Source: Oscillospiraceae bacterium (GTDB lineage Bacteria; Bacillota; Clostridia; Oscillospirales; Ruminococcaceae). From it: a stretch of 64,000 nucleotides of DNA. Numbering within the stretch: the first letter of the stretch is position 1; every line of letters begins with the position of its first letter. The notes beneath the pieces are model-generated. The model was not told where the DNA came from. It saw nothing but the letters and a program-made list of their open reading frames with translations, and made no database searches. The translations under genes were made by a program, and so were the position numbers. The DNA lies in the NCBI GenBank assembly GCA_017427265.1, contig JAFRTG010000033.1, positions 1 to 64,000 on the forward strand. Reading direction: 5' to 3'. Positions 5,095 through 50,279 of this stretch are shown piece by piece.

Positions 5095-5115
5095 CCGGAC
5101 GGCATATAACAGTTT

Positions 5116-5151: not shown

Positions 5152-5297
5152 ATTGCCTCAGCGGTTTCCGGATCTATAGTCACGATACAGATAAAAACGC
5201 CGGTGCATTGCCCATATACTTCATAATACTTCTGGCCGTGCATCAGAGATCCGCCGGCTGAAAACTGCTGTATGGGCGCAATCCTTTATACGGGCGC

Positions 5298-5326
5298 TTG
5301 CAATTCTTCCGGAATCGTGGTATAAT
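5298..5326 (+). promoter_or_regulatory. sigma-A promoter of the B6 kinase operon
   Basis: TTGCAA (5298-5303) and TATAAT (5321-5326), spacing 17. Confidence 0.65.
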
Positions 5327-5367
5327 GCTGAGAGAAACCGAAACCCCGAAAAGGAGGAATGCAGCCA

Positions 5368-6715: not shown

Positions 6716-6720
6716 TATAG

Positions 6721-6752
6721 TCCCGGTTTGCTTCGGCGAGCCGGGATTTTTT
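6721..6752 (+). terminator. strong terminator with UUCG loop
   Basis: An 11-bp stem (6721-6731 with 6736-6746) closes a TTCG tetraloop and is followed by TTTTTT. Confidence 0.85.
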
Positions 6753-6753
6753 C

Positions 6754-6782
6754 TTGCAATTTTGTTCGTTATGTGTTATAAT
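6754..6782 (+). promoter_or_regulatory. sigma-A promoter of the LRR-dockerin gene
   Basis: TTGCAA (6754-6759) and TATAAT (6777-6782), spacing 17, directly after the preceding terminator. Confidence 0.65.
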
Positions 6783-6832
6783 AAATACGCTACACTGCAC
6801 GGCAGCACATTCATATCTGAAAGGAAGTAATC

Positions 6833-8617
6833 ATGATGAAGAAACTACGAAAACTGGCTGTATTACAGGCTGCCTGTCTGCTGGCGACCGGCGGAGCGAC
6901 GCTGCTCCCTGCGGCGCCGGAGCTTTCGATTACGGCATCTGCCTACAGTGAGGAAAAGGCAGGGGACTTTACAATCCGGAAGTATGAGACCTATGTGGAG
7001 ATCGTAAAGTACAACGGCGAAGAGACCGAAGTGACGATTCCGGGTACGATCGACGGGCTGCCGGTGCTGAGTATTTGTGATTGTTCAATTTATTCTTCTG
7101 ACGCTTCTATGTTTGCTTCTTCACTGAAAGCAAAAATAACTTCTGTTTCTCTGCCGGATTCACTGTTGAATATCGGAAGTGCAGCATTTAACGGGTGTAC
7201 TTCGCTGAAATCTATTGTGATTCCGGAGTCTGCTACTGTTATCAAAAGCTATGCTTTCAGCGGCTGTTCATCGTTGGAAAAGATACAGCTGCCGAAAAAA
7301 CTGCAATCTATTCCGGCGTACTGCTTTGATGGATGCAAAAGTTTAGATGAGATTCAGGTTCCGAAAACGGTTTCGGCGATTGAAACATATGCTTTTCATA
7401 ATTGCAATTCACTGGAATTATTCAAGGTGCCGGAGAAAGTCACTTCAATTTCAAACTATTCGTTTTCCGGTTGTACCAGTCTGACAAGCATTTCATTTCC
7501 GGACAATTTGAAAAGTATTGGAATGGAGGCGTTTTGGGGTTGTAAGAGCCTGAAGGAAATCGGAATTCCGGAAGGAGTTACTTCAATCGGCAGTTCTGCT
7601 TTTCAGGGGTGTACAAATATAAAAGAGGTTGTTATTCCTTCAACCATGAATTCTTTAGGAGCAGGGGCGTTTAAGAACTGTGAACGTCTGGAAAAGATCT
7701 CGTTTTTGAACCCTCGGTGTAGTTTTGCTTTGTGTACTGCAAATGCAATCTGCAACTATATTCTGAACAATTATTGTTATTATAACGGCGTCATCTGCGG
7801 TTATGACGGTTCGACCGCAGAAGAATTCGCAAACAAATACAGCACCTATGAATTTGAATCGCTCGGTCCGGCCTCTGCCGCAACAACCACGGCCAAGGTG
7901 ACAACGACTGCCGTCCCCGCAACGACTGTCACCACGCAGACCACCGCTCTGCCGACAACGTCAGCTGCAAAGGTCTCCGCATCCAGAGTGACAACAACCG
8001 CCACGCAGGCCGTCAGCACGAAAACCGGCACCACGGCAAAGGTTTCCGCGACCAGATTGACAACAACCGCCACACAGGCTGTCAGCACGAAAACCGGCAC
8101 CACGGCAAAAGTCTCCGCGACCAGATTGACAACGACTGCCACACAGGCTGTCAGCACGAAAACCGGCACCACGGCAAAGGTCTCCGCGACAAAAGTGACA
8201 ACAACTGCCACACAGGCTGTCAGCACAAAGACCGGTACCACGGCAAAAGTCTCCGCGACAAAAGCGACAACAACCGGAACACAAATCCGGACAACCGCCC
8301 GTGCGACTGAGACCGCGATCGTCACAACCACAGCCGTTCCCGCAGACCAGCCACTTGAAACCGGCGACCTCACAGGCGACGACAAAGTCAATCTCCGGGA
8401 CGTCCGCGAGGCGCTGAAGGAGTACACCTATACCTTCATTGATTTGCCAAGCATCCTGAACGAATCGCAGAAAAAGGCTGCGGATATCGACGGCGACAGC
8501 AAAATCACGCTGAAGGACGTCCGCATGATCCTGAAATACTACACGTATAACAGTGTCTCCAAGCTGAGTGTCACATGGGAGGATATCAAAACCGGAAAGA
8601 AACCGGAGGAAGAATAA
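6833..8617 (+). CDS. secreted BspA-type leucine-rich-repeat protein with C-terminal dockerin
   Basis: 594 residues. A lysine-rich N-terminus and hydrophobic stretch (about 1-38, ending near ITASAYS) form a signal peptide. Residues about 104-293 hold eight to nine LRR_5 repeats of the pattern L-P-x-x-(L/V)-x-x-I-x-x-x-A-F-x-G-C-x-S-L. Residues about 345-500 are a Thr/Ala linker with a 23-residue tandem repeat. Residues about 505-575 form a type I dockerin with two calcium loops, DLTGDDKVNLRD and DIDGDSKITLKD. The protein is therefore exported and can dock onto a cohesin, as in ruminococcal cellulosome-like systems; the LRR part suggests binding to protein or host surfaces. The ATG at 6836 is an equally good start. 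The LRR segment is visibly richer in A/T than the linker and dockerin, suggesting a module of separate origin. Confidence 0.88.
   Translation: MMKKLRKLAVLQAACLLATGGATLLPAAPELSITASAYSEEKAGDFTIRKYETYVEIVKYNGEETEVTIPGTIDGLPVLSICDCSIYSSDASMFASSLKAKITSVSLPDSLLNIGSAAFNGCTSLKSIVIPESATVIKSYAFSGCSSLEKIQLPKKLQSIPAYCFDGCKSLDEIQVPKTVSAIETYAFHNCNSLELFKVPEKVTSISNYSFSGCTSLTSISFPDNLKSIGMEAFWGCKSLKEIGIPEGVTSIGSSAFQGCTNIKEVVIPSTMNSLGAGAFKNCERLEKISFLNPRCSFALCTANAICNYILNNYCYYNGVICGYDGSTAEEFANKYSTYEFESLGPASAATTTAKVTTTAVPATTVTTQTTALPTTSAAKVSASRVTTTATQAVSTKTGTTAKVSATRLTTTATQAVSTKTGTTAKVSATRLTTTATQAVSTKTGTTAKVSATKVTTTATQAVSTKTGTTAKVSATKATTTGTQIRTTARATETAIVTTTAVPADQPLETGDLTGDDKVNLRDVREALKEYTYTFIDLPSILNESQKKAADIDGDSKITLKDVRMILKYYTYNSVSKLSVTWEDIKTGKKPEEE
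7967..8284 (+). repeat. 69-bp in-frame tandem repeat (about 4.6 copies)
   Basis: Four full units start at 7967, 8036, 8105 and 8174, and a partial fifth starts at 8243. Each encodes 23 residues beginning AKVSA and ending TKTGTT, making the threonine-rich linker between the LRR and dockerin modules. Copies differ mainly at synonymous positions and at the residue pair RV/RL/KV/KA. Confidence 0.9.
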
Positions 8618-8630
8618 GACCGGCAAACCG

Positions 8631-8675
8631 GCGCCGCCGTGCAGAGAAGATCTGTGCGGCGGCGCTTTTTGTTTT
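8631..8675 (+). terminator. strong terminator after the LRR-dockerin gene
   Basis: A 15-bp stem starting GCGCCGCCG (8631-8645 with 8651-8665) is followed by TTTTTGTTTT. Confidence 0.85.
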
Positions 8676-8677
8676 GC

Positions 8678-8707
8678 TTGACAATGCCGCCGGCCCTGTG
8701 GTATAAT
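8678..8707 (+). promoter_or_regulatory. sigma-A promoter of the Stn-like operon
   Basis: TTGACA (8678-8683) and TATAAT (8702-8707), spacing 18. Confidence 0.75.
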
Positions 8708-8716
8708 GAATCCATA

Positions 8717-8752
8717 CCGTAATATTGCGTAGATTTATACGGAATATTACGG
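8717..8752. promoter_or_regulatory. 10-bp inverted repeat just after the start of transcription
   Basis: CCGTAATATT (8717-8726) and AATATTACGG (8743-8752) are perfect inverted repeats with a 16-base spacer, lying at about +4 to +39 of the operon transcript. It fits an operator or a leader hairpin. It does not resemble the known Rex site. Confidence 0.5.
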
Positions 8753-8827
8753 ATTATGATGGGATTTTTCGGCATCCGCCCGCCGGAAGGGCGGCGCACT
8801 GGCTGCAGTGCGGAAAAGGAGTATCAC

Positions 8828-9328
8828 ATGGAATGTGCGTGCACAAAGCAAAAAAGCGATCTCTCGCTGCTGGCGCCTGTGCTTGCGGAATATGCTTCCG
8901 TCCGGGGGAGTCTGATTACGATTTTGCAGAAGGCGCAGGAAATTTACGGCTGGCTGCCTGTTGATGTGATCTATCACATCGCGGAGCAGACCGGTACAAC
9001 GCCTGCCCGCGTGCTCGGCGTTGCAACTTTTTATACGCAGTTCCGGTTTCAGCCGGTCGGCAAGTATCTGATTATGCTCTGTGACGGAACGGCCTGCCAT
9101 GTCAACGGCAGCGCTGCGATTGCCGCTGCCCTGCGGGAATATCTGCATGTGGAAAACGGCGGCACCACCGCGGACGGTCTGTTTTCGCTCAGCATTGTTG
9201 CATGTCTCGGCTGCTGCTCGCTCTCACCGGTCATGATGGTCAATGAAGATACCTACGGTTCCCTGACGCCGCAGTCGGCGCTGGCGATTATGAAGGATAT
9301 TCAGGCAAAGGAGGCGGCACAGGCATGA
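8828..9328 (+). CDS. NuoE-like [2Fe-2S] thioredoxin-fold subunit (StnA/HydC/HndA type)
   Basis: 166 residues. The helical N-terminal half (ending GWLPVDVIYHIAE) and thioredoxin-like C-terminal half match the 24-kDa NADH dehydrogenase subunit. The four cluster ligands are visible as C-x4-C in LCDGTACHVNG and C-x3-C in ACLGCCS. It carries one [2Fe-2S] cluster in soluble flavin complexes. The open frame starts earlier, but ATG 8828 has GGAG six bases upstream. The stop overlaps the next start by four bases (ATGA), as expected for subunits of one complex. Confidence 0.85.
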   Translation: MECACTKQKSDLSLLAPVLAEYASVRGSLITILQKAQEIYGWLPVDVIYHIAEQTGTTPARVLGVATFYTQFRFQPVGKYLIMLCDGTACHVNGSAAIAAALREYLHVENGGTTADGLFSLSIVACLGCCSLSPVMMVNEDTYGSLTPQSALAIMKDIQAKEAAQA

Positions 9329-11082
9329 GAATTGCAGTCGGACAGGGAAGCTGCGGCATCGCAGCCGGAGCAGCAAAGGTCTGTGCGGCGCTGCAGGAGC
9401 AGCTTCCGCCGAACGTAAAGCTCGGAACAGTCGGCTGCATCGGCATGTGCTGGCTGGAACCGATCGTGGATATTTATGACGATGACAATACGCTGCTGCA
9501 CCGTCTGGTGCGTGTCAGACCGGAGGATGCGGCGCGCATTCTCAAATGGACGCAGGACGGGGAAGATTTCAATATCATGGATCTGATAATCGGGAAAGAC
9601 GATGCGCAGTTCCTCACACAGCAGACGCGCATCGCACTGCGCAACTGCGGTTTGATTGATCCGGAGTCGATTGAAAGTGCATTGGCAGCCGGCGGTTATT
9701 CTGCTGTCGGAAGGATTCTTTCTGCCGACAGCGGCATGACCCCGGAAGAAGTGATTGAATGCATCAAAGTATCCGGCCTTGCGGGCAGAGGCGGCGCGGG
9801 CTTTCCGACATGGTTCAAGTGGAACGCTGCGCGGCAGTCGCCCGGAAATGAGAAATATCTGATCTGCAATGCGGACGAGGGCGACCCCGGCGCATTCATG
9901 GACAGAGCGGTCATCGAATCCGACCCGCATACGCTGATTGAAGGTATGCTGATCGGCGCCTACGCGATCGGTGCGCAGGAAGCGATCGTCTATGTCCGTG
10001 CGGAATATCCGCTGGCAATCAGACGGCTGGAACACGCGATCGAAGAAGCGCGTGCCGCCGGTTATATCGGCAAAAACATCATGGGCTCGGATTTCTCCTG
10101 CGAATTCCGCATCAAGGCGGGCGCAGGTGCGTTCGTCTGCGGTGAGGAGACGGCGCTGATCGAATCGCTGCAGGGACAGCGCGGCATGCCGCGTCTGAAG
10201 CCGCCGTTTCCGGCGGAAGCGGGCTACTGGAATCAGCCGTCCAACATCAACAATGTGGAGACCTTTGCCAATGTTGCATGGATTATCAACAACGGCGGCG
10301 AGGCGTTTGCGGCCATGGGCACTGCGGATTCCAAGGGTACAAAGGTTTTTGCGCTGACCGGAAAAATCCGGCGCGGCGGACTGGTTGAAATCCCGATGGG
10401 CATGACGCTGCGGCAGGTGATTTTTGACATCGGCGGCGGCATCCGGGACGGCAAGGCGTTCAAGGCCGTGCAGATGGGCGGCCCGTCCGGCGGCTGTATT
10501 CCCGCGGAGCTGCTTGACACTGTGATTGACTATAAAAAGCTCGCGGCGACCGGTGCGATCATGGGCTCCGGCGGCATGGTCGTCATGGATGCGGACACCT
10601 GCATGGTCAGCATGGCGAAATTCTTCCTCGATTTCACAGCAAAGGAATCCTGCGGAAAATGCGTGCACTGCCGCATCGGCACAAAGCGTCTGCAGGAGAT
10701 TCTGACGCGGATTGTCGAAGGAAACGGCCGTGCGGGCGATATCGAGCTGCTGGAAGAGCTCTGCCTTGCCGTGCGCGACGGTGCGCTCTGCGGCCTCGGC
10801 CAGACGGCGCCGAATCCGGTGCTTTCGACGCTGCGGTATTTCCGGGACGAATTCGAGGCGCATATTCGTGATAAGCAATGTCCCGCTCATAGCTGCACCG
10901 CGCTGCTGCGTTACGGAATCGACGCGGACACATGCAGGGGCTGTACGCTCTGCGCGAAGAAATGTCCAGTTTCCGCGATTTCCGGCACCGCGAAGAACGC
11001 GCACCGCATCGACCCGGACATCTGCGTCCGCTGCGGCGCCTGCTATGCGGTATGCAAATTCGGCGCGGTCAGAAAGCTGTGA
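9325..11082 (+). CDS. NuoF-like FMN/NADH-binding subunit with C-terminal ferredoxin domain (StnB/HydB type)
   Basis: 585 residues. Order of domains: thioredoxin-like [2Fe-2S] segment at the N-terminus (GCIGMCW near residue 38); FMN/NAD(H) Rossmann-like core with GLAGRGGAGFPTWFKW (about 152) and CNADEGDPGAFMDR (about 180); SLBB segment; NuoF C-terminal [4Fe-4S] site ESCGKCVHCRIGT (about 440); then a two-cluster ferredoxin domain with CRGCTLCAKKCP and CVRCGACYAVCK. This extended architecture is that of the flavin subunit in electron-bifurcating HydABC, HndABCD and Stn complexes, where NADH is oxidised or reduced at the FMN. It lies between the NuoE-like and GltD-like genes; no hydrogenase catalytic subunit is present. 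Confidence 0.9.
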   Translation: MRIAVGQGSCGIAAGAAKVCAALQEQLPPNVKLGTVGCIGMCWLEPIVDIYDDDNTLLHRLVRVRPEDAARILKWTQDGEDFNIMDLIIGKDDAQFLTQQTRIALRNCGLIDPESIESALAAGGYSAVGRILSADSGMTPEEVIECIKVSGLAGRGGAGFPTWFKWNAARQSPGNEKYLICNADEGDPGAFMDRAVIESDPHTLIEGMLIGAYAIGAQEAIVYVRAEYPLAIRRLEHAIEEARAAGYIGKNIMGSDFSCEFRIKAGAGAFVCGEETALIESLQGQRGMPRLKPPFPAEAGYWNQPSNINNVETFANVAWIINNGGEAFAAMGTADSKGTKVFALTGKIRRGGLVEIPMGMTLRQVIFDIGGGIRDGKAFKAVQMGGPSGGCIPAELLDTVIDYKKLAATGAIMGSGGMVVMDADTCMVSMAKFFLDFTAKESCGKCVHCRIGTKRLQEILTRIVEGNGRAGDIELLEELCLAVRDGALCGLGQTAPNPVLSTLRYFRDEFEAHIRDKQCPAHSCTALLRYGIDADTCRGCTLCAKKCPVSAISGTAKNAHRIDPDICVRCGACYAVCKFGAVRKL

Positions 11083-11094
11083 GGGGGGATTTCC

Positions 11095-13152
11095 ATGAGT
11101 CAGATACATTTTACAATCAACGGCAAGCCCTGCGTCTGCGAGGCGGGAACGTCGATTCTGCAGGCAGCCAAGCTGAACGGCATCGGGATTCCGAACCTCT
11201 GCAATGATGAGAGCGTGCGTGTATACGGCGCCTGCGGTCTGTGTGCGGTCGAGGTGCTGGATGACGGCAGAGGCCGTCCGGTGCCGAAGCTGCTGCGGGC
11301 GTGCTCGGCCAAGGCGATGGAAGGCTATGCCGTGCGGTTTGATACCGAACGTGTCAATCAGGCGCGCAGAATTGCGCTGGAGCTGCTGATGAGCGATCAT
11401 ACCGGCGACTGCCGCGGCCCGTGTCAGCTGCACTGTCCGGCAGGCACCGACTGTCAGGGCTATGTGAAGAAAATTGCACAGGGCGATTTCCGCGGCGCTG
11501 TGGAGATCATCAAGGAGAAGATTCCGCTGCCTGCTTCGATCGGCAGAGTGTGTCCGCATCCCTGTGAACAGAACTGCCGCAGGGGCATGGTCGAGGCGCC
11601 GCTTTCGATTGCGCTCCTGAAAGCACATGCGGCCGACCGTGATCTTGCAGGCGACACCTACCGTCCCGTCCCGGCTGCGGATACCGGCAAGCGGGTCGCG
11701 GTGATCGGCGGCGGCCCTGCGGGTCTGACGGCAGCTTATTATCTGAGACAGAAGGGGCACGGCGTCACGGTTTACGATGCCGCTGCGAAAATGGGCGGTA
11801 TGCTGCGCTATGGCATTCCGGCCTACCGTCTGCCGAAAGACCTGCTCGACCGCGAGATTGCAGAGATCGAGCGGCTCGGCATCACCATGAAAAACAATGT
11901 CCGGCTCGGCAGCGATATCACGCTGGAGCAGCTGCGGCAGGAATATGACGCGGTGATTCTTGCGACCGGCGCATGGAGCAGCATGAATATGCGCGTGCCG
12001 GGCGAGACGCTTGACGGCGTAACCGGCGGCATTCAGTTTTTGCATGATATCAGCTCCGGAGAGGGCGCTGTGCCCGATCTGACCGGCAAGCGGGTCGCGG
12101 TCTGCGGCGGCGGCAATACGGCAATGGATGCCTGCCGGACGGCGGTTCGCTGCGGTGCGGACAAGGTCTATGTGATCTACCGCAGAACGCGCAGCGAGAT
12201 GCCCGCGGAGGAAATCGAGATTGCGGAAGCCGCGGAAGAGGGCGTGATCTATCAATTCCTGACGAATCCCGCGGAAATCATCGGAGAAAACGGGCATGTG
12301 AAGCAGCTTAAACTGCAAATCATGGAGCTCGGCGAACCCGATGCGTCCGGACGGCGTTCGCCGGTGCCGGTCGAGGGCAAATTTGAATATCTGGACGTCG
12401 ATCTTGTTATTATGGCTATCGGCCAGAAGCCGGATGCTGCCGGTCTGGACGGCATTCAGCTGACGAAAAAAGGTACTGTCGAAGCGGATGAATCAACCTT
12501 CCTGACAAATCTGCCGGATGTGTATGCAATCGGTGATGCAACGAACCGCGGCGCATCCATTGCGGTTGAGGCGATCGGCGAGGCGGGACGCTGTGCGGCT
12601 GTCGTCGATTCGGCACTGCGCGGAGAGATGCAGCCTTACCGTGCGCCGTTCTATTCCCGGAAGCAGGTCACGGCGGAGGATCTTGCCGACCGTGAAAAGC
12701 AGCCGCGCTGTCAGATGCCGGTGCGTCCGGCGGCGGAACGGCGTCAGGATTTTGCGCCGGTCAGTCCCGGTATCACCGATGAAACAGCGGTGCGGGAGGC
12801 GAAGCGCTGCCTCGAATGCGGCTGCCATGATTATGCGGAATGCAGGCTGATCCGCTATGCGCAGCAGCAGGAGATTCATCCGGAGCGACTGGACGGTGTG
12901 AAGAATCCGTCCGAAAAAGAACGCAGACTCGTCTGTATTGAACGCGACAACGGCAAATGTATCCTCTGCGGGCTCTGCGTGCGCATCTGCGATGAGGCTG
13001 CAAAGCAGGGCATTCTCGGTCTTGTCGGCCGCGGCTTTGAAACGGCAGTCAAGCCGGAATTTCAGAATCCCGCTGCGGTTGAGATTTGCAGAACATGCAA
13101 AAAATGTGCGATTGCCTGTCCGACCGGTGCGCTGAAAATCCTTACGGAATAA
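11095..13152 (+). CDS. GltD/NfnB-like FAD and NAD(P)H oxidoreductase with N- and C-terminal iron-sulfur domains (StnC type)
   Basis: 685 residues. Residues 1-75 are a plant-type [2Fe-2S] ferredoxin (Cys36, 47, 50, 70). Next comes the GltD-type cluster region (CRGPCQLHCPAGTDC), an FAD Rossmann fold (VIGGGPAG near 202) and an NAD(P)H fold (VCGGGNTAMDA near 335). The C-terminus adds CLECGCHDYAEC and a two-cluster ferredoxin with CILCGLCVRIC and CRTCKKCAIACP. The core is homologous to NfnB and the small subunit of glutamate synthase. In the same transcript as NuoE/NuoF-like subunits, it most resembles StnC of the Sporomusa-type transhydrogenase, which couples NADH, NADPH and ferredoxin pools. A stand-alone oxidoreductase is the alternative. 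The RBS is GGGGGG, nine bases before the ATG. Confidence 0.82.
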   Translation: MSQIHFTINGKPCVCEAGTSILQAAKLNGIGIPNLCNDESVRVYGACGLCAVEVLDDGRGRPVPKLLRACSAKAMEGYAVRFDTERVNQARRIALELLMSDHTGDCRGPCQLHCPAGTDCQGYVKKIAQGDFRGAVEIIKEKIPLPASIGRVCPHPCEQNCRRGMVEAPLSIALLKAHAADRDLAGDTYRPVPAADTGKRVAVIGGGPAGLTAAYYLRQKGHGVTVYDAAAKMGGMLRYGIPAYRLPKDLLDREIAEIERLGITMKNNVRLGSDITLEQLRQEYDAVILATGAWSSMNMRVPGETLDGVTGGIQFLHDISSGEGAVPDLTGKRVAVCGGGNTAMDACRTAVRCGADKVYVIYRRTRSEMPAEEIEIAEAAEEGVIYQFLTNPAEIIGENGHVKQLKLQIMELGEPDASGRRSPVPVEGKFEYLDVDLVIMAIGQKPDAAGLDGIQLTKKGTVEADESTFLTNLPDVYAIGDATNRGASIAVEAIGEAGRCAAVVDSALRGEMQPYRAPFYSRKQVTAEDLADREKQPRCQMPVRPAAERRQDFAPVSPGITDETAVREAKRCLECGCHDYAECRLIRYAQQQEIHPERLDGVKNPSEKERRLVCIERDNGKCILCGLCVRICDEAAKQGILGLVGRGFETAVKPEFQNPAAVEICRTCKKCAIACPTGALKILTE

Positions 13153-42862: not shown

Positions 42863-42877
42863 GCGGGCACTGCCCGC
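42863..42877 (-). terminator. short hairpin at the end of the cobalamin operon
   Basis: On the minus strand GCGGGC-AGT-GCCCGC starts immediately at the stop codon and is followed by TTCCATTTTCC. Confidence 0.45.
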
Positions 42878-43564
42878 CTAGAGACCGTATTTTTTTTCGA
42901 TTCGGGCGAGCTTGTCGCCGATCGGTTTGGCAAGCAGCATCAGAAAAATCAGATTCGACAGCGCATAAATCACCGGATACGGCATGGAGCTGACAACCGC
43001 TGCCAGATACTGCGCTGCCGTGAATTCGCCGTATGTCCAGACCGTCGTCCAGATGTCCAGCAGCATCGAATAACCAAGCCCCGAAATCAGCCCGTATCCA
43101 TACAGCAGCAGCCGTGAGCCCCGCAGCGGCTTTGCGAACAATCCCGCAAACAGGCCGATCAGCCCCCACGCAAGCATCTGAAACGGCGTCCACGGCCCCT
43201 GTCCCATGATAAAATTCGAGAGCACCGCAGAGAGCGCTCCGACCAGAAAGCCCGATTCCGGCCCGAGATACATCGCCGAAAGCACCGTGATCGCCGTGAT
43301 CGGCTTCATCAGCGGCAGCATTCGTCCGAGTACCGAAAGTGCCGTCATAACCGAGACCAGAATCATGCGCCGCGTGCCGAGCTCCCGACGCTCAAATCCT
43401 GCAAGAAACAGCAGCAGCGCCATCAGCGTCATCGCAAAGCTGACAAGCGCATAATACTGCGACTGTGCACGCTTCGGCATCAGCAGAACAATCGCCGGCA
43501 TGATCGCAAAGGGCAGCGCGATGCGCAGAATTCTGCGGATTTTCTCCGATTTGATGACAAGCAC
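42878..43564 (-). CDS. ECF transporter S component, probable cobalamin-specific
   Basis: 228 residues with six to seven predicted membrane helices. The TRRMILVSVMTALSVLGRMLP segment and the GPESGFLVGALSAVLSNFIMGQGPWTPFQML segment are typical of larger ECF S components (the cobalt/cobalamin-related group). It would bind the vitamin at the outer face and couple to EcfT and EcfA encoded upstream in the same operon. The start is GTG at 43564, because GGGAGGG ends six bases before it; the longer open frame to 43627 has no ribosome-binding site. Cobalamin specificity is inferred from the operon's riboswitch and DUF4430 proteins, not from the S component itself. Confidence 0.75.
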   Translation of the reverse strand: MLVIKSEKIRRILRIALPFAIMPAIVLLMPKRAQSQYYALVSFAMTLMALLLFLAGFERRELGTRRMILVSVMTALSVLGRMLPLMKPITAITVLSAMYLGPESGFLVGALSAVLSNFIMGQGPWTPFQMLAWGLIGLFAGLFAKPLRGSRLLLYGYGLISGLGYSMLLDIWTTVWTYGEFTAAQYLAAVVSSMPYPVIYALSNLIFLMLLAKPIGDKLARIEKKYGL

Positions 43565-43581
43565 CGCAAGCCCTCCCTTCG

Positions 43582-44109
43582 TCAGGTCTGTTCCATTCGC
43601 ACGACCGTTTCTCCTGCCGGAATGCATTCGGCATACCGGCGGTTCCAGATGAATTCGTTGTAGTAACGGTAGGTTTGTTCCGCCGTCAGATGCGGATTAT
43701 CCAGCGTTGTATTGGCATAGGCCGGAACGATCATCCGGAATCCGTGCTCAAAGCCGCATTTGACCGCCGCATCCACACAGTATTCCGTTTGAAGGCCGGT
43801 GACAATCAGCTCTGTTTCCCCGCATGTCCGCAGATATTGCAGCAGGCCGGACGACCGGAACGGGCTGTTGACCGTTTTATCAAAGACCCGTTCGCCCTTT
43901 TCCGGCGCAAACGGTGCAGCGATTGCAAAGCCGGGATGTCCGGGCGAAAGCGGCGCTCCGGTTCCGTCATTGTGCCGCAGATACAGCACCTCCGTACCGG
44001 TTTGACGCGCTGTCTCCAGAAGTATCTTCAGCGTTTCGGTGAATACATGGTAATGAAAAAGCTCCGGCGTATAGATCGCCGTCTGGACATCAATCACAAG
44101 CAACTTCAT
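43582..44109 (-). CDS. isochorismatase-like cysteine hydrolase
   Basis: 175 residues. The three catalytic residues of the family are visible: Asp in LLVIDVQTAI (residue 7), Lys in RVFDKTVNSPF (about 79) and Cys in VTGLQTEYCVDAAVKCG (about 112), with the cis-peptide context before the nucleophile. Members hydrolyse small amides or vinyl ethers (nicotinamide, N-carbamoylsarcosine, isochorismate). It lies inside the cobalamin-transport operon, overlapping the ATPase gene by 20 bases, but no link of this activity with cobalamin is known to me; an amide side-chain substrate is a speculation. Confidence 0.82.
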   Translation of the reverse strand: MKLLVIDVQTAIYTPELFHYHVFTETLKILLETARQTGTEVLYLRHNDGTGAPLSPGHPGFAIAAPFAPEKGERVFDKTVNSPFRSSGLLQYLRTCGETELIVTGLQTEYCVDAAVKCGFEHGFRMIVPAYANTTLDNPHLTAEQTYRYYNEFIWNRRYAECIPAGETVVRMEQT

Positions 44110-45745
44110 GCAAGCCTCCGTTCTCCTGCACCAGCCGGACGATCTGCCCGACGGTTACAGTCTGCTGATAAAATCCGCGGGAAATGCGGCTCGCGGCAGT
44201 CGTATAAAACGCATTCTCCGCAAAAAAACGCTGCGGTACATCCGCCGAGATCAGCGCCCCGCGGGACAAAAATCCGCAGCGATCCGCATGACAGGCGGCA
44301 AATTCAATGTCATGCGTGACCATGAGCACCGTCACGCCCTGCGCCTGAAGTCCGTGCAGCACCTCTGCAAGCCGCAGCTTCGACTGCGCGTCCAGACCCT
44401 TGGTCGGCTCATCGAGCAGCAGCAGCCTTGGCCGCGTCAGCATGACTTTTGCAAGCGCCAGAAGCTGCTGCTCACCGCCGCTGAGATCATAGGGATGCTG
44501 CCCGTACAGCGGGCTCAGATCAAACGGGAAATCCGCGAGCGCGGTCTCATAGTTCCGGTCGATCTCCGCAAGCTCCTCTGCAGCGGTATTGCACAGAAAC
44601 ACCGTCTGGACATCCTGCGGCAGAAGCGTCACGCACTGCTGATGCAGACTGCGCTGCTTATAATCCCGGATCGGCTTGCCGAAGATCTCGATTTTGCCCG
44701 CATAGCACTTCCGGATGCCCGAAAGCACCGCAAGCATGGTCGATTTGCCAGCGCCGTTTCCGCCGATCATGCAGTAGAATTCGCCGGTCTGCACGGAAAA
44801 GCTCAGACCGTTCAGAATATCCCGGCCGCTGCGTTCGTAGCGGAAAAATGCATCCCTGACCGTCAGGGCAGGGGACGTCTGCGGACGCGGCTCCGGCTCC
44901 GGCAGCGAACGGATATTTACCGGCAGCCGCGGCATCAGATCATTCCGCGCATCGCTGACCGAAAGCGGACATTCGCCCTGCATTCCCAGCGCATGATACA
45001 GCCGCACCGCTGCGGGCATACCGGCCGTCACGGGTGAATCCGCCGGAAGCTGCCGGAGCAGTCTGCGCGGCGCATCCTGCATGACGACTTTGCCGCGTTC
45101 CATGAGCAGCAGCTGCGTACAGACCGGAATCACATCCTCAAGCCGGTGCTCGGCCAGCAGAATTGTGATGGAAAAATCCCGGTTGAGCCGCTGCAGCGTC
45201 GTCAGAAAATCCGCAGCAGCGATCGGGTCGAGCTGCGCCGTCGGCTCATCGAGCAGCAGCAGCCGCGGCTGCATAATCATCACGCTTGCCAGATTGAGCA
45301 GCTGCTTCTGTCCGCCGGAAAGCGAAGCGGGGTCACGGTCGAGCCATTCCTCCATCCCGAAGTAGGATGCGATTTCCGCAATGCGCCGCCGCATGATCTC
45401 CGGCGGTGTGCCGAGGTTTTCGAGCCCGAACGCCAGCTCATGCCAGACGCGGTCGGTCACGATCTGCTGCTCCGGATGCTGCATCACAAAGCCGATCTGT
45501 GAGGCCGCCGTGCGGTCATCGTAATCCGCAAGCAGTCTGCCGTCGAACAGCACACTGCCGCTCTGCGTGCAGCGCGGAATCAGCTCGCGCTTGCACATCC
45601 GCAAAAGCGTCGTTTTGCCGCAGCCGGTCGCGCCGCAGATCACCGCAAAATCACCCGGCTCCAGCGAAAAGGAAACATCCGACAAAACCGGCGTACTGCA
45701 TTCCGGGAACCGCACCGTCAGATGCTCTGCCGCAAGCAATGCCAT
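44090..45745 (-). CDS. energy-coupling factor ATPase, two fused domains (EcfA-EcfA')
   Basis: 551 residues with two ABC ATPase domains in one chain. Domain 1: Walker A ICGATGCGKTT (about 36), signature LSGGQKQ (about 140), Walker B LLLLDEPTAQLDP (about 160), H-loop LLAEHR. Domain 2: Walker A IGGNGAGKST (about 328), signature LSGGEQQ (about 425), Walker B LLLLDEPTKGLD (about 445), H-loop VTHDIE. Separate EcfA1/EcfA2 genes are commoner; fused forms are known. It energises the S component through EcfT. It overlaps ecfT by 28 bases and the following hydrolase gene by 20. Confidence 0.92.
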   Translation of the reverse strand: MALLAAEHLTVRFPECSTPVLSDVSFSLEPGDFAVICGATGCGKTTLLRMCKRELIPRCTQSGSVLFDGRLLADYDDRTAASQIGFVMQHPEQQIVTDRVWHELAFGLENLGTPPEIMRRRIAEIASYFGMEEWLDRDPASLSGGQKQLLNLASVMIMQPRLLLLDEPTAQLDPIAAADFLTTLQRLNRDFSITILLAEHRLEDVIPVCTQLLLMERGKVVMQDAPRRLLRQLPADSPVTAGMPAAVRLYHALGMQGECPLSVSDARNDLMPRLPVNIRSLPEPEPRPQTSPALTVRDAFFRYERSGRDILNGLSFSVQTGEFYCMIGGNGAGKSTMLAVLSGIRKCYAGKIEIFGKPIRDYKQRSLHQQCVTLLPQDVQTVFLCNTAAEELAEIDRNYETALADFPFDLSPLYGQHPYDLSGGEQQLLALAKVMLTRPRLLLLDEPTKGLDAQSKLRLAEVLHGLQAQGVTVLMVTHDIEFAACHADRCGFLSRGALISADVPQRFFAENAFYTTAASRISRGFYQQTVTVGQIVRLVQENGGLHEVACD

Positions 45746-46596
45746 GTCAGCGCCTCCTTTCCCTCACAAAGCACCGGCAGCAGCGCCAGCAGCGCATAGG
45801 CTGCCGCCGTACCCGCATACGGCAGACTGAACGCCGGTGCAATCCGCTGCGGATAATACTGCCAGTCAAGTCTGCCGGACATGATCCCGCAGACCGTCAG
45901 CGCGGTCAGAAGCAGTACCGCTCCGACCAGTATTGCATCCGCCTTTCCGAATCGGAAATACGTGAAGCTGCTGCGCTTTCCCGTTCCGTATCCGCGTGCG
46001 GCCATACTGTTTGCGGTGATGATGCCGTTTTCCAGCGCCCATGTTACCAGAATCGAAAAGACCCGCAGGCCGCCGCGCACATCGTCAAGCAGATGCCCCT
46101 CGCGGTAGAGTCCGAGTCCGCGCTGCGCCGTCTGGATTCGGTGCATCTGCTCGCGGAACAGCGTCAGATTGCGCACCGCCATACAGAAAATCAGCGCCAG
46201 CTTCGGGGAAAACCCGCGGAACAGATAAAACAGCTTTTCACTCGTCATCAGATCGGAGAAATTGCGGAACCAGTAAAGCACAGCCGCAAGCCGCAGACCG
46301 GTCACGGCACCGTAAAAGAGCGCTTCTTCCGTATACGCCCGCTGATTGATGACGAACAAAACCGTCGTGCCGTGCTGATTCCAGAGGGGATTCAGCAGCG
46401 CGAACAGCAGCGGAAGCCCGATTGCTGCAATATGAAAGCCGATGTGCTTTCTGCCGCTGCGCATTATAAAAAATGCCATTGCGCAGAGCAGCGAGATCAG
46501 CAACAGCACCGGTTCCAGACAGAAAACCGTGATGCAGGCCGTCAGCAAAATCTGTGCCGTAACCGCCGCAGGGTTCATTGCGTCAAAAGCGCGCAT
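45718..46596 (-). CDS. ecfT: energy-coupling factor transmembrane subunit EcfT
   Basis: 292 residues. Membrane helices alternate with two long cytoplasmic coupling helices. The conserved Ala-Arg-Gly signature appears as MHRIQTAQRGLG (about 150) and NSMAARGYGTG (about 205), the two motifs that insert into the EcfA grooves. It links the ATPases to an S component. GGAGGGG lies just before ATG 46596, 24 bases after the upstream gene's stop, within a continuous minus-strand operon. Confidence 0.9.
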   Translation of the reverse strand: MRAFDAMNPAAVTAQILLTACITVFCLEPVLLLISLLCAMAFFIMRSGRKHIGFHIAAIGLPLLFALLNPLWNQHGTTVLFVINQRAYTEEALFYGAVTGLRLAAVLYWFRNFSDLMTSEKLFYLFRGFSPKLALIFCMAVRNLTLFREQMHRIQTAQRGLGLYREGHLLDDVRGGLRVFSILVTWALENGIITANSMAARGYGTGKRSSFTYFRFGKADAILVGAVLLLTALTVCGIMSGRLDWQYYPQRIAPAFSLPYAGTAAAYALLALLPVLCEGKEALTWHCLRQSI

Positions 46597-46620
46597 CTGC
46601 CGCCCCTCCTTCCGTTCCGA

Positions 46621-48414
46621 TTACAGGCTGACCGTATACGCCCAGACCACGCGGTCGCCGTCATGCAGCGGAAAGCCGCCGCAGCCGACCGACGGCCGTT
46701 CGCCGTTGACGGTATAGGTCCAGCCGGACAAATCGCCGAAATCAAATTCATAGAGTGATTCAATTCCGCGTACATACGCCGTTTCGCCGCTGCCGTCCAC
46801 CTCTGTTTGCAGCGTATAGACCTTTACTGCATCATAGAGCAGATCGAGCGCGGTTTCCTCCGGCGCGATTGAAAATTCAGTCAGCGGCATCAGAACACCG
46901 TCGGCAGGATATTTTTCACTGCCCTCCATGCCGAGAATCACATCGCAGCGGATTTCCATTGTGACAGTTCCGCCGCCGGTTTTCATTTCGCTCTGATAAT
47001 ACTGCGCCGGCGATTCGATCTTCACAAACCAGATCAGCGCCGTGACGATCAGCAGCCCGCCGCCGAGTGTCAGATATGTCTTAGGGCTGCGCTTTTTCCG
47101 CAGCAGACAGATCACTGCGGCCGCACCGAATATCGCAATCGCAGCGATTATCAGCGGAAGCCGGTAAGGATATTTTTCGGCATCGCTCCGCAGATCGGCA
47201 GGCGGCGCCGTTGTCAGAATGACCTCCGGAACCGTCTCCTGCAGCGCCGTTGTCTGTGTGACAGCAGATGCGGCAGCAGATTCCGATGCAGTGCCGGAAA
47301 CAGCAGTTGTGGTATGGCCTGAAACAGTTGCCGCAGTTGTCTGCGTCACTGCGGATGCGGTTCCGGAGACCGTCTGCGTTGTTTCGGCAGGCTGCTTCTG
47401 TGCCGGCGCTGCGGTTTGCTGCGGTGTTTCCGGATTTACAGCCGGCTGCAGCGGCTCTGATGCAAAGTCCCGGAACTGCAGCAGTGCGCCTTCTCCGTTG
47501 TGCTGCATCTCCGCGGCTGTCAGCGCCAGAAAGACCTGCATCGCTGCAATCTGATTGGCACCGCCGCCCGCCGTATGGGAATAAGCGCCCTCCGATACGC
47601 GGAACTGCAGAATGCCGTCCAGCAGTGAATGGCCGTCCCGGATGAAGCGGCTGTCCGCAAGCGGATCCGTCCCCAGTGCGCAGAGCGCGATCCAGACCTG
47701 TGCCGTGCTCTCCGGATTCTCCGTGCCGAAGCTCTGATATGCGCCGCTTGGGAGCTGCTGCGCCGAAAGATAATCCACGCCGCGCGCGACTGCATCCGCA
47801 GCGGTGCTGTCATCGCGGTACGGGGCAAGCGCCTGCAGCGTCATGGCCGTTACGTCCGGGTCACCGAATTCGCCGGTCAGCGACCAGCCGCCGTCCGGTG
47901 CCTGCAGGGAGACAAGCGCTGTCACGAGATCCGAGCGGCTGTACGTTCCGGACGGAACGCCGTTATTGAGCAGATGCAGTGCAAAGATCCGGCTCATGAT
48001 GCCCAGCCCTTCCGCACTGCTGTCAAGGATCTCCGTGCAGACTGCAGGCGGCTCCGGTGTACAGGCCGTCAGCGTGAGCGCGAGCCGTTCGCGTGAAACA
48101 GGAGAGGGTTCGTCATTTGCGGCAAGATACTGCTGCAGTGCCGCGCCGTAGGCGGACATGTCATAGCCGTAATGCGCAGAAAGCGCCATCGTATACCAGT
48201 CAGATGCGCTTCGCCCGACCTCTGCCGGCAGTGTATTCTGTGCCCAGCCGCCCGGATCTCCGCCGCTCACTGCATTGAGAATCTCCGCTGCATAATCTCC
48301 GCAGCGTCCGTCATAGCCGGATGCACACAGCGGCAAAAGCAGCCGGAGGCCGCTCAGGCACAAAACCAGAGCACAGCATCCGGCTGCAAGCATCCGTTTC
48401 AGATTTTTACTCAT
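46621..48414 (-). CDS. membrane protein with alpha/alpha-barrel and DUF4430 domains (intrinsic-factor/transcobalamin-like)
   Basis: 597 residues. An N-terminal signal anchor (about 5-30) is followed by an all-helical domain (about 35-330) with prenyltransferase/squalene-cyclase-type repeats: SLQAPDGGWSLTGEFG, YLSAQQLPSGAYQSFG and FRVSEGAYSHTAGGG. Then come a Thr/Ala/Val linker, two membrane helices (about 417-440 and 447-468) and a C-terminal DUF4430 domain (about 476-597) ending SGWTYTVNGERPSVGCGG and HDGDRVVWAYTVSL. An alpha6-alpha6 barrel plus DUF4430-like beta domain is exactly the two-domain make-up of human intrinsic factor and transcobalamin. With the upstream cobalamin riboswitch and the ECF genes, it is probably a surface cobalamin-capturing protein. 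The start shares ATGA with the previous gene. Confidence 0.75.
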   Translation of the reverse strand: MSKNLKRMLAAGCCALVLCLSGLRLLLPLCASGYDGRCGDYAAEILNAVSGGDPGGWAQNTLPAEVGRSASDWYTMALSAHYGYDMSAYGAALQQYLAANDEPSPVSRERLALTLTACTPEPPAVCTEILDSSAEGLGIMSRIFALHLLNNGVPSGTYSRSDLVTALVSLQAPDGGWSLTGEFGDPDVTAMTLQALAPYRDDSTAADAVARGVDYLSAQQLPSGAYQSFGTENPESTAQVWIALCALGTDPLADSRFIRDGHSLLDGILQFRVSEGAYSHTAGGGANQIAAMQVFLALTAAEMQHNGEGALLQFRDFASEPLQPAVNPETPQQTAAPAQKQPAETTQTVSGTASAVTQTTAATVSGHTTTAVSGTASESAAASAVTQTTALQETVPEVILTTAPPADLRSDAEKYPYRLPLIIAAIAIFGAAAVICLLRKKRSPKTYLTLGGGLLIVTALIWFVKIESPAQYYQSEMKTGGGTVTMEIRCDVILGMEGSEKYPADGVLMPLTEFSIAPEETALDLLYDAVKVYTLQTEVDGSGETAYVRGIESLYEFDFGDLSGWTYTVNGERPSVGCGGFPLHDGDRVVWAYTVSL

Positions 48415-49349
48415 TCTTCTCTGCGGCGGCGGAACGCAAAGGCCGTACCGCAGGCTGTCAGCGCTGCGATGATGACGGCAGGCATTGCGCCGGTATCACC
48501 GGTTTTCGGCGCACTGTCCTTGTTGCCGGAAGCAGTTGTCTGCGCCTTGGTTGTCGTTGCAGCGGCTGTGGTATTGGAAGCCGTTGTTGCTGCCGTCGTA
48601 ACAGTTGTATCAGCAGCCGTTGTTGTGGTCGCTGCAGGAACGGTTACCGTAGTCTCAGCCGGTGCTGCATGGACACGCAACGCAAGCGGTACCAGATTCT
48701 GCTCCGACTTGATGCCGAGAATCATATCACCGCTGCGGTCCAGCGTGACCTGCACCGAGCCGTTTGCATCGGTCTTGAAGGCGGTCTCCTCACCGTCTAC
48801 GGTGATGACCGCATCCGGAACCGCAGAAGTCTCGATCTGCGCGCCGACATACTGGAGCTTTTTGAGATTCAGCGTCAGCGTATCACCCTGCTTTGCGTCC
48901 GGTACGGCTTTGACATCAAAATAGCAATAGGCATCCGAATAGCCGGCTGCATCCTTCATAGCATATGCGCTGAGATAATCGCCGTTCTTCACCGGGTCGG
49001 AAAGTCCCATCGCAAACTCATCGTTGACTGTATAGCCGAAGCTGCCGTTATTGGTCAGACCCCAGAGCTTCTTGATGCTCAGACCCCAGTCGCTTTCCGC
49101 AGAGGTGTAGCCTGCAGCCGCACCGCCCTCATAGTACAGATCGTGTACGGCGTAGAGCGCCTCGTCAATGGTAAAGACGCCGTCGCCGTCGCGGTCCTTG
49201 ACGGCAACATCCTCACATGGAACGGCAAGCTCGCCGGCCGCACCGATCGTGATGTGCACCGTGATTTCATCGTCCGCTGCAAATGCGGAGAATGCCGCAG
49301 CCTGTACTGCAACAGCTGCTGTGAGAATGATCGCTCCGAGTTTTTTCAT
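48411..49349 (-). CDS. cell-wall-anchored DUF4430-type protein
   Basis: 312 residues. Signal peptide about 1-25 (MKKLGAIILTAAVAVQAAAF ... AFA). Residues about 27-150 form a DUF4430-like beta domain with NNGSFGYTVNDEFAMGLSDP and KNGDYLSAYAM; an EF-hand-like loop DRDGDGVFTIDE sits inside it. A second beta domain (about 150-225) is followed by a Thr/Ala linker and a sorting signal: APKTGD, a hydrophobic stretch and RRRREE, an LPxTG variant. It is thus exported and probably sortase-linked to the wall. It is the first gene after the cobalamin riboswitch. ATG 49349 is chosen over 49367 because GGAGGT lies between them, seven bases upstream. Confidence 0.78.
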   Translation of the reverse strand: MKKLGAIILTAAVAVQAAAFSAFAADDEITVHITIGAAGELAVPCEDVAVKDRDGDGVFTIDEALYAVHDLYYEGGAAAGYTSAESDWGLSIKKLWGLTNNGSFGYTVNDEFAMGLSDPVKNGDYLSAYAMKDAAGYSDAYCYFDVKAVPDAKQGDTLTLNLKKLQYVGAQIETSAVPDAVITVDGEETAFKTDANGSVQVTLDRSGDMILGIKSEQNLVPLALRVHAAPAETTVTVPAATTTTAADTTVTTAATTASNTTAAATTTKAQTTASGNKDSAPKTGDTGAMPAVIIAALTACGTAFAFRRRREE

Positions 49350-49375
49350 TTTTTCTACCTCCGGCATTATTTTTC

Positions 49376-49413
49376 GGATCCGGCGTGCATGAAAAATGCG
49401 CTTTTCCGGATCC
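49376..49413 (-). other. leader hairpin of the cobalamin operon
   Basis: GGATCCGG and CCGGATCC arms enclose a 22-base loop 20-60 bases ahead of the first gene's ATG. It may be part of the riboswitch expression platform; no T-run follows, so control of translation or a switch in folding is more likely than simple termination. Confidence 0.4.
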
Positions 49414-49496
49414 GGTCAAGCGCAGCATCAATGCACCCGCTGGCAGAGCATCTGCCGGGGCGTTTTGACGGCCGCACTTTTCTTACCCAAAAATGT

Positions 49497-49634
49497 GAGC
49501 ATCTGCGCTGATTTGCGCATGCTCCGTCCGTACTGTGCACAGTGAGCGATCCGACTGTAACGGTAGTGGCAGCTGCGGCGGATTTGCACCGCACTTCTCT
49601 CAGGAGCCATGCCTTCGGCATGGTACTGTGCACC
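49497..49634 (-). ncRNA. cobalamin riboswitch, compact (class II-like)
   Basis: On the minus strand the conserved core reads GGTGCAAATCCG (49579-49590), then CGCAGCTGCCACTACCG (49561-49577; the GCCACT junction) and TTACAGTCGGATCGC, as in cobalamin aptamers. A perfect 9-bp P1 (GTGCACAGT at 49625-49633 with ACTGTGCAC at 49535-49543) closes a 99-base aptamer. A separate hairpin (GAGCATgCGC...GCGcagATGCTC, 49497-49524) could supply the kissing-loop partner. The classical long peripheral arms and B12 box are missing, which fits the smaller class. It is placed directly after a consensus promoter and ahead of the DUF4430/ECF operon. Confidence 0.8.
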
Positions 49635-49652
49635 ATATTTTGTTATAAAAAT

Positions 49653-49681
49653 ATTATAGCACGCAGACTGCTGTTTGTCAA
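49653..49681 (-). promoter_or_regulatory. sigma-A promoter of the cobalamin operon
   Basis: On the minus strand TTGACA (49676-49681) and TATAAT (49653-49658), spacing 17; the start point falls about 12 bases before riboswitch stem P1. Confidence 0.8.
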
Positions 49682-49714
49682 GCAGAATCTGCAAGATTTC
49701 CTGCATAGAAAGAC

Positions 49715-49743
49715 TTTACAAACCGGCGGATTTGTGGTATGAT
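49715..49743 (+). promoter_or_regulatory. sigma-A promoter of the GNAT-DHHW operon
   Basis: TTTACA (49715-49720) and TATGAT (49738-49743), spacing 17; divergent from the cobalamin promoter. Confidence 0.6.
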
Positions 49744-49835
49744 AAAGAGGAATGCAATTCCGGAGCTTCCGGGACAGAACCGCAGTGTACTGCTGCGGAA
49801 GATTCCGGGCTCTGACCTGTCAGCGGAGGAACAAT

Positions 49836-50279
49836 ATGCTGAGATTTCGGAAACTGAAAAAAAACGATCTTGCTGAGACAGACTGGGAACACGCTGCTCT
49901 GACAGCGCTGCTTCCTGCCCCCTCATACTGGGCGGATGCGTTGGATGCGGGCGCTGCACTCTTTGTCATTTTTGACGGCGAAAAGCCGGTCGGAATGCTG
50001 GAAATGGACGCGAACCCGACGGAAAGCCGTCCTGCCTGTGCAAAAGTGAACCGCGTTCTGATTCTGCCGGAGCTGCGGCGGCACGGTCTCGGCCGGATGC
50101 TGATGGCGCTGGCCGCCGGAGAAGCCGTCGAACGGAAGCTGTGGTTCATTGCGGGCGCTGTTCCGGATACGGAAGAAGCACAGGGCTTTGCGGCCGGGAT
50201 TCATCTGCGGAGAAGCGAGTGGTTTGACGATCTGTTCGTGCTCGATCTCTCCGATGTTGAGGGACTGCGGCATGGCTGA
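49836..50279 (+). CDS. GNAT-family N-acetyltransferase
   Basis: 147 residues. The acetyl-CoA-binding signature is RVLILPELRRHGLGRMLMALA (about 68-88; R/Q-x-x-G-x-G/A type), preceded by GEKPVGMLEMDANP (strand 4). Substrate unknown. The open frame extends upstream, but ATG 49836 has GGAGGA six bases before it. The 3' end overlaps the next gene by eight bases, so the pair is cotranscribed. Confidence 0.8.
   Translation: MLRFRKLKKNDLAETDWEHAALTALLPAPSYWADALDAGAALFVIFDGEKPVGMLEMDANPTESRPACAKVNRVLILPELRRHGLGRMLMALAAGEAVERKLWFIAGAVPDTEEAQGFAAGIHLRRSEWFDDLFVLDLSDVEGLRHG

What the first reader, a model, noticed from the sequence alone, without database searches (positions are those of the whole stretch)
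42863..49681. Riboswitch-controlled cobalamin operon with intrinsic-factor-like surface proteins
Seen: on the minus strand, a consensus promoter, a cobalamin aptamer, a sortase-type DUF4430 protein, a membrane protein with alpha/alpha-barrel and DUF4430 domains, EcfT, a fused EcfA pair, an isochorismatase-like hydrolase and an S component, mostly with overlaps. Known: human intrinsic factor and transcobalamin consist of an alpha6-alpha6 barrel plus a beta domain to which DUF4430 is related, and ECF transporters import cobalamin in some Firmicutes. Inference: the two exported proteins capture cobalamin at the wall and membrane and pass it to the S component, a Gram-positive counterpart of host cobalamin carriers.
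Basis: partly seen in the sequence, partly recalled or inferred. Interest (0 to 1): 0.88.

Follow-up and report, generated by a model that had tools for sequence, protein, structure and literature searches.

The report
Gut bacterium's vitamin B12 capture operon
A Ruminococcus-like gut bacterium carries a B12-switched set of genes for two surface proteins that look like the proteins that carry vitamin B12 in our own bodies, next to the genes of a probable B12 pump; such operons were foreseen in 2007, and we found no bench test of them.

Summary

Burroughs et al. (2007) already predicted such Gram-positive operons as B12 scavengers, so this is a well-supported new member of a predicted kind. Riboswitch, CbrT-type S component, unrecognised beta-domain protein and a minimal lipoprotein version go beyond the parts of that paper that I read. 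Binding and hand-over are untested.

The parts
49653..49681 (-). sigma-70 type promoter, TTGACA-17 nt-TATAAT
   Evidence: 12 of 12 consensus match
49537..49612 (-). cobalamin riboswitch aptamer core (AdoCbl-II, RF01689)
   Evidence: 35.2 bits, E 1.8e-6 locally; only match in the genome at E<=1, E 2.1e-6; leader model R1 matches 49463-49627 at 127 bits, the window being one of its 18 training sequences
49497..49524 (-). hairpin between aptamer and expression platform
   Evidence: -15 kcal/mol, z -2.6 for 49480-49530; stem letters change together in relatives (by eye)
49475..49497 (-). conserved hairpin CACAUUUUU...GAAAAGUG, proposed anti-antiterminator
   Evidence: in the RNAalifold consensus of 18 leaders
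49392..49424 (-). terminator-like hairpin (UGCGCUU...AAGCGCA, then UUUUU)
   Evidence: about -15 kcal/mol; a hairpin of -9 kcal/mol or better before a U-run in 51 of 52 leaders (no shuffle control); its 5' arm can pair with the 3' arm of the hairpin above (swap test)
48411..49349 (-). P0001: exported protein with LPXTG-type anchor, a transcobalamin/haptocorrin-type beta domain (residues 33-144, numbered from the upstream start at 49367) and a second beta-sandwich domain
   Evidence: LPXTG model; AlphaFold model, ten-residue blocks 31-240 at mean pLDDT 90-98; pdb_via ranks 1-11
46621..48414 (-). P0002: signal sequence, alpha/alpha-toroid-like half (about 36-330), Thr/Ser-rich linker, two-helix membrane hairpin (419-437, 448-466), DUF4430 domain (520-594)
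   Evidence: Pfam; profile versus PDB; hydropathy and loop charge
45718..46596 (-). P0003: EcfT (CbiQ family)
   Evidence: PF02361 28.7 bits, cut-off 25
44090..45745 (-). P0004: fused EcfA-EcfA' ATPase
   Evidence: two ABC_tran stretches; ECF ATPase model 9.6e-92, 307 bits against a cut-off of 315
43582..44109 (-). P0005: isochorismatase-like hydrolase, accessory
   Evidence: PF00857 3.2e-23; homologue in 8 of 80 related loci
42878..43564 (-). P0006: S component, CbrT-like (likely GTG start at 43564; longer ORF begins at 43627)
   Evidence: phmmer to 6fnp_A 2.6e-10; family profile 2.2e-14, next chain 0.0038

Best explanation
This is a corrinoid (vitamin B12) capture and import operon, repressed by its own cargo. 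When cytoplasmic cobalamin is high the riboswitch lets a terminator form before the first gene; when it is low an antiterminator forms and the operon is transcribed. P0001, anchored in the cell wall or membrane, and P0002, held on the outer face of the membrane by a two-helix hairpin, bind corrinoid with transcobalamin-type domains. P0002 carries both halves of a carrier (toroid and beta domain) on one chain and probably clasps the ligand between them. The ligand is then taken by the CbrT-like S component and pumped in by EcfT-EcfAA'. Shown by computation here: the riboswitch match and its conserved place, gene content and order, the predicted fold of P0001, the DUF4430 domain and predicted topology of P0002, and the CbrT relation. 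Inferred: direction of switching, ligand binding by P0001 and P0002, the clasp, and hand-over.
Against: The window's own aptamer is below Rfam's cut-off, and its leader does not fold better than shuffles to a striking degree (z -1.4, 13 of 200 shuffles as good). The genome also has CbiD and what look by eye like further B12-synthesis and BtuFCD-type genes with another cobalamin riboswitch, so scavenging is not its only likely source. The 11 of 80 loci without a P0001 homologue show no cobalamin riboswitch (permissive scan of 5 of them; one, L118, has no upstream DNA), and 9 of the 69 others show none either (3 of these have under 500 bases upstream). The Latilactobacillus relative has none. 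So the link is not universal. No sequence-level match to intrinsic factor or transcobalamin. Single-leader antiterminator tests reach 5% in only 16 of 52. A shared fold does not show binding.
Confidence: 0.8

Rival explanations
1. The ECF transporter imports B12, but the two surface proteins bind something else, for example a B12-carrying protein, cell-wall glycan, or a corrinoid precursor or other cobamide that the S component does not prefer.
For: Burroughs et al. concede under review a wider range of ligands for the superfamily (PMC1796856, section 10). The genome has CbiD and apparent B12-synthesis genes, which would fit salvage of incomplete or foreign corrinoids. CbrT itself also binds cobinamide (PMC5997447 passages).
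Against: Co-control by a cobalamin-clan riboswitch and the specific fold match of P0001 to the beta domains of cobalamin carriers.
Confidence: 0.25
2. P0002's N-terminal half is an enzyme of the terpene-cyclase type rather than a binding toroid.
For: The best sequence matches of the toroid are squalene-hopene cyclases (3.4e-10).
Against: The cyclase DxDD motif (recalled) occurs in the first 400 residues of only 2 of 62 homologues, and P0002 reads D-x-D-V at the place aligned to it. The protein is predicted to be exported, has a single toroid-sized half, and is fused to DUF4430.
Confidence: 0.03
3. A cobalt or nickel ECF transporter whose surface proteins are unrelated to B12.
For: EcfT scores with the CbiQ cobalt-transport family, and cobalamin riboswitches also control cobalt uptake (recalled).
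Against: The S component is CbrT-like, with no cobalt/nickel S-component family among its Pfam (E<=1) or NCBIfam (E<=0.1) hits. The EcfT score is far below TIGR02454's cobalt cut-off (19.9 versus 111.8), while another gene of the genome is a strong CbiQ match (154 bits).
Confidence: 0.05

Closest known systems
[quoted passage not shown]
   Same: Exported SLBB proteins, some with a Gram-positive anchor; fusion to an alpha/alpha toroid; a second exported SLBB protein in the operon; CbiO-like ATPase and CbiQ-like membrane protein; predicted B12 scavenging
   Different: The parts I read (abstract, passages, sections 7 and 10) do not mention a riboswitch, a CbrT S component or the two-helix hairpin; they say that such bacteria usually lacked key B12-synthesis enzymes, whereas this genome has CbiD
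ECF-CbrT of Lactobacillus delbrueckii (PDB 6FNP; PMC5997447, passages)
   Same: S component related by sequence (2.2e-14 to the family profile), ECF module
   Different: There CbrT sits in an nrdJ-cbrS-cbrT-pduO cluster and is predicted to share one ECF module with other S components; here EcfT, EcfAA' and two surface proteins are in the same operon
Human haptocorrin, transcobalamin, intrinsic factor
   Same: P0001's model has the haptocorrin/transcobalamin beta-domain fold; P0002 combines a toroid-like half and DUF4430, which transcobalamins also carry (PMC4350170, one passage)
   Different: In P0002 a long linker and two membrane helices lie between the halves; P0001 has a beta domain but no toroid; no detectable sequence match
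BtuG/BtuB surface capture of B12 in Bacteroides (PMC10404256, search listing and start of abstract only)
   Same: A surface protein works with the B12 transporter
   Different: Outer-membrane lipoprotein and TonB-dependent transporter, a different machine

Membership tests
Cobalamin riboswitch, AdoCbl-II (RF01689) | score at or above the gathering cut-off | tested here: not met
   35.2 versus 36.5 bits for the window's copy; copies in eight relatives pass
Cobalamin riboswitch, AdoCbl-II (RF01689) | significant match to the covariance model, in conserved position before the same genes | tested here: met
   E 2.1e-6 genome-wide; cobalamin-clan riboswitch at 60 of 80 related loci
Cobalamin riboswitch, AdoCbl-II (RF01689) | binds cobalamin and changes expression | not testable with these tools
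   needs binding and reporter assays
SLBB transcobalamin clade (DUF4430), P0002 | Pfam PF14478 match above cut-off | tested here: met
   59.2 bits, cut-off 23.8
SLBB transcobalamin clade, P0001 | Pfam PF14478 match | tested here: not met
   0 of 54 family members at E<=0.1 among the 25 families shown; no hhalign match to P0002's DUF4430
SLBB transcobalamin clade, P0001 | beta-grasp fold with a beta-hairpin inserted after the helix | tested here: met
   on a predicted model: strands 34-43, 46-57, helix 67-78, hairpin 87-92/95-101, strands 110-114, 131-136, 146-150; haptocorrin and transcobalamin fill ten of the first eleven matches
Intrinsic factor/transcobalamin family | Pfam PF01122 or sequence match to intrinsic factor, transcobalamin or haptocorrin | tested here: not met
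   no PF01122 among P0002 hits at E<=1; none in PDB sequence searches with P0002 or its profiles or with P0001's
Intrinsic factor/transcobalamin family | toroid and beta domain clasp one cobalamin | not testable with these tools
ECF transporter with CbrT-type S component | S component related to CbrT, with EcfT and two ATPase domains in the operon | tested here: met
ECF transporter with CbrT-type S component | transports B12 | not testable with these tools
   needs uptake assay

The most novel reading that the evidence does not exclude
A two-stage extracellular B12 relay of Gram-positive bacteria: a surface-anchored lone beta domain, then a membrane-hairpin carrier whose toroid and beta domain close on the ligand as transcobalamin does, handing it to a dedicated CbrT. 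With the minimal lipoprotein-plus-membrane-protein version, it would represent the bacterial stock from which animal intrinsic factor and transcobalamin were drawn (an origin proposed by Burroughs et al. 2007).
Probability: 0.4. Interest if true: 0.82.

Novelty: new member of a known kind. Interest (0 to 1): 0.6.

Why it matters
How Gram-positive gut bacteria catch scarce B12 outside the cell is, to my knowledge, poorly known compared with the TonB/BtuG route of Bacteroides. Riboswitch control ties these transcobalamin-like surface proteins to corrinoids more firmly than gene neighbourhood alone, and hundreds of genomes (453 relatives found; many of the 80 named loci come from animal guts by their titles) would share a testable B12 capture system. 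If the proteins bind B12, they also offer a living bacterial counterpart for studying the origin of the animal carriers.

Tried and rejected
Sequence-level link of P0001 to DUF4430: Pfam on 54 members, hhalign on whole and part alignments and a PDB profile search all failed; only the fold comparison succeeded. Sequence-level link of P0002 to intrinsic factor or transcobalamin failed. The first genome-contig scan with P0002 alone found no relative; the alignment scan found 453, of which the best 80 were kept. The consensus terminator scan missed the terminator (its single hit, against 0.7 expected, lies upstream of the promoter); it was found by eye and then by script. In one search the lowest-energy hairpin of several leaders (for instance L086, L097, L131, L135, L141, L149) is the longer antiterminator-like pairing rather than a plain terminator, and no shuffle control was run for the hairpins. 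In one search only 34 of 52 leaders could be parsed and a few of the parsed arms look wrong. Cyclase and thioester roles for the toroid were considered and rejected (no GCGEQ in 62 of 62, few DxDD; motifs recalled). The membrane protein of the minimal version matched no PDB chain (one of five searched). Literature: ten searches in an open-licence library found the 2007 prediction but, in what I saw, no experimental test and no mention of the riboswitch link; subscription papers such as Rodionov 2009 are not held, so this absence is weak.
Full report
WHAT IS THERE. On the minus strand of the window, a 12-of-12 sigma-70 promoter (49681-49653) is followed by a cobalamin-clan riboswitch and six genes. 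The Rfam scan of the whole window at gathering thresholds lists nothing. A scan of 49200-50000 with E-values gives AdoCbl-II (RF01689) at 49537-49612, 35.2 bits against a cut-off of 36.5, E 1.8e-6. A search of the whole 3.8 Mb genome finds this one RF01689 match at E<=1, E 2.1e-6. The near-miss is therefore a matter of the cut-off, not of chance. The leader's own fold is not remarkable (z -1.4); the case rests on the covariance model and on comparison. The genes are an exported LPXTG-type protein (P0001), a membrane protein with an N-terminal half of alpha/alpha-toroid type and a C-terminal DUF4430 domain (P0002), EcfT, a fused EcfA pair, an isochorismatase-like hydrolase and an S component.

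CONSERVATION. P0002 has relatives at E<=1e-10 in 47 of 100 genomes examined (own included). An alignment-based scan of GTDB genomes found 453 relatives, of which the tool kept the best 80. Their titles name Ruminococcus, Ruminococcus flavefaciens (FD-1 and ND2009 among them), Oscillospiraceae, Lachnospiraceae and other Clostridia, many from ruminant and other animal gut samples. They are not all independent; some are near-twins (L100/L101, L133/L139/L151). Of these 80 loci, 69 carry a P0001 homologue, 71 an EcfT and 67 an S homologue; 50 show the homologues in the order P0001-P0002-EcfT-EcfAA'-S, and 8 have the isochorismatase gene (blastp labels). Several of the rest are cut by contig ends. 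In L152 the P0001 gene lies 3.8 kb before the toroid gene.

RIBOSWITCH ASSOCIATION. A covariance model built from 18 leaders (window plus 17 relatives) finds 56 matches at E<=0.1 in the window and the 80 loci (1.3 Mb), each on the coding strand, in 51 of 80 loci. All 29 loci left over were scanned with Rfam at gathering, and 9 more have a Cobalamin or AdoCbl riboswitch, making 60 of 80. All 60 are among the 69 loci with a P0001 homologue. Of the 9 misses there, 3 (L087, L093, L123) have under 500 bases upstream. None of the 11 loci without a P0001 homologue has one (recount; one of them, L118, has no upstream DNA), and a permissive scan of 5 of the 11 also found none. Looking the other way, without using proteins: of the 32 RF01689 sites at E<=0.01 in 100 genomes (most below the cut-off, which 8 pass), 21 lie before P0002-type operons (positions compared). 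Five more, in G012, G070, G076, G084 and G085, lie before a small lipoprotein-like gene with DUF4430 (E 1.1e-9 to 6.6e-6, five of five) followed by a 176-197 aa membrane protein for which no Pfam or NCBIfam model passes its cut-off; one of these five was searched against PDB sequences, without a match. I looked at one of the remaining six sites (G035: tetrapyrrole genes by eye) and not at the other five. The window's genome has only one DUF4430 protein, so 26 of 32 is a strong link; I did not count DUF4430 genes in the other genomes. The gathering scan of L172-L176 did not list the five sites, which score 27-31 bits.

SWITCH MECHANISM. The leaders of relatives share, after the aptamer, a hairpin CACAUUUUU...GAAAAGUG and then a G+C-rich hairpin followed by U's before the first gene. 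The consensus fold of 18 leaders has 19 pairs, 7 with at least one sequence changed on both sides. A script found a hairpin of -9 kcal/mol or better before a U-run in 51 of 52 leaders, without a shuffle control; the antiterminator pairing passed a per-leader shuffle test at 5% in only 16 of 52. In a swap test on the 34 of 52 leaders that could be parsed, each arm pairs better with its own partner (mean -9.98 kcal/mol) than with partners from other loci (-8.52, sd 0.35; 0 of 500 permutations), which relatedness may inflate. I infer an OFF switch by transcription termination; the direction is not shown.

P0002. DUF4430 is clear, and transcobalamins themselves carry a C-terminal DUF4430 (PMC4350170, one passage). 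The toroid relation rests on squalene-hopene cyclase matches and is to the fold class, not to intrinsic factor in particular. In 62 of 62 aligned proteins (P0002 and 61 of the 69 relatives that picked) two hydrophobic segments separated by a loop of net charge +3 to +6 lie before DUF4430, so toroid and DUF4430 should both face outward. The structure could not be predicted.

TRANSPORTER. P0006 matches 6fnp_A, the CbrT complex of L. delbrueckii (6FNP per PMC5997447), at 2.6e-10; the family profile gives 2.2e-14, with the next chain at 0.0038. CbrT binds cobalamin at about 9 nM and cobinamide at 36 nM (PMC5997447, passages). The genome has three other CbiQ-family genes. A Latilactobacillus curvatus plasmid has LPXTG-DUF4430-EcfT-EcfA-S in the same order, S 34% identical to P0006 and also nearest to 6fnp_A (3.3e-14), but no toroid hit in the two surface proteins at E<=0.01 and no Rfam riboswitch at E<=1.

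HOST METABOLISM. The genome has two B12-binding-domain proteins (790-aa and 482-aa reading frames), CbiD, another cobalamin riboswitch on C33 and, by eye, CbiK-, BtuF-, BtuC- and BtuD-like genes behind it. In the same-genus genomes G000-G018, of varying completeness, CbiD is found in 10 of 19 and P0002 in 16 of 19; both in 8, P0002 without CbiD in 8. So the operon seems to serve both makers and non-makers of B12. This departs from the 2007 remark that such bacteria usually lacked key B12 biosynthetic enzymes.

PRIOR ART. Burroughs et al. 2007 (PMC1796856; abstract, passages, sections 7 and 10 read) describe exported SLBB proteins of Gram-positives, often fused to an alpha/alpha toroid, often with a second SLBB protein, in operons with CbiO-like ATPases and CbiQ-like membrane proteins. 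Riboswitch control, the CbrT-type S component, the P0001 fold, the outward topology and the minimal version are additions here. Ten searches of an open-licence library showed me no experimental test; of most papers listed I saw only the listing.

VERDICT. A real, widely conserved B12-controlled capture-and-import operon, and a new member of a kind predicted in 2007. Cargo import is likely; ligand binding by the surface proteins is probable; the relay is a hypothesis.

Noticed in passing
L172 1202-2204, L173 454-1518, L174 2508-3462, L175 2214-3168, L176 915-1884: Minimal version behind an AdoCbl-II-like site: a small DUF4430 lipoprotein-like gene plus a membrane protein of 176-197 aa that looks like an ECF S component by eye only (no Pfam or NCBIfam family over cut-off).
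   Followed up: partly
L083 6839-7150, L086 7800-8093, L115 4305-4526, L157 7721-8014 and other long-leader loci: A 74-134 aa reading frame with a shared RSDF...IKA.LGPWPRALEAAGLK-type stretch lies between the riboswitch and the LPXTG gene in at least 12 of 16 long leaders looked at; the four scanned match PF18780, homing-endonuclease-associated repeat, below cut-off. The window's short leader lacks it.
   Followed up: partly
L131 10531-10677, L135 10640-10790, L141 10634-10780: A second match to the leader model (cobalamin riboswitch type) lies between the toroid gene and EcfT.
   Followed up: no
L079, L084: The EcfT-EcfAA'-isochorismatase-S block is turned around relative to the two surface-protein genes.
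   Followed up: no
L076 (G000:C33) 4628-12503: B12-synthesis and BtuFCD-like genes of the same genome around another cobalamin riboswitch at C33:10117-10329 (most labels by eye).
   Followed up: partly
L036 (G025:C15) 4002-4265: A stretch 82% identical to the end of P0002, with one stop inside, follows the toroid gene: apparently a duplicated DUF4430 remnant.
   Followed up: no
P0001 residues 58-69 and alignments A3, A8: An EF-hand-like DxDxDG loop is kept in nearly all P0001 homologues, hinting at calcium binding near the beta domain.
   Followed up: no
window 49715-49743, plus strand: A 10-of-12 promoter-like site faces away from the operon toward an acetyltransferase-like gene at 49752 (label by eye).
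   Followed up: no
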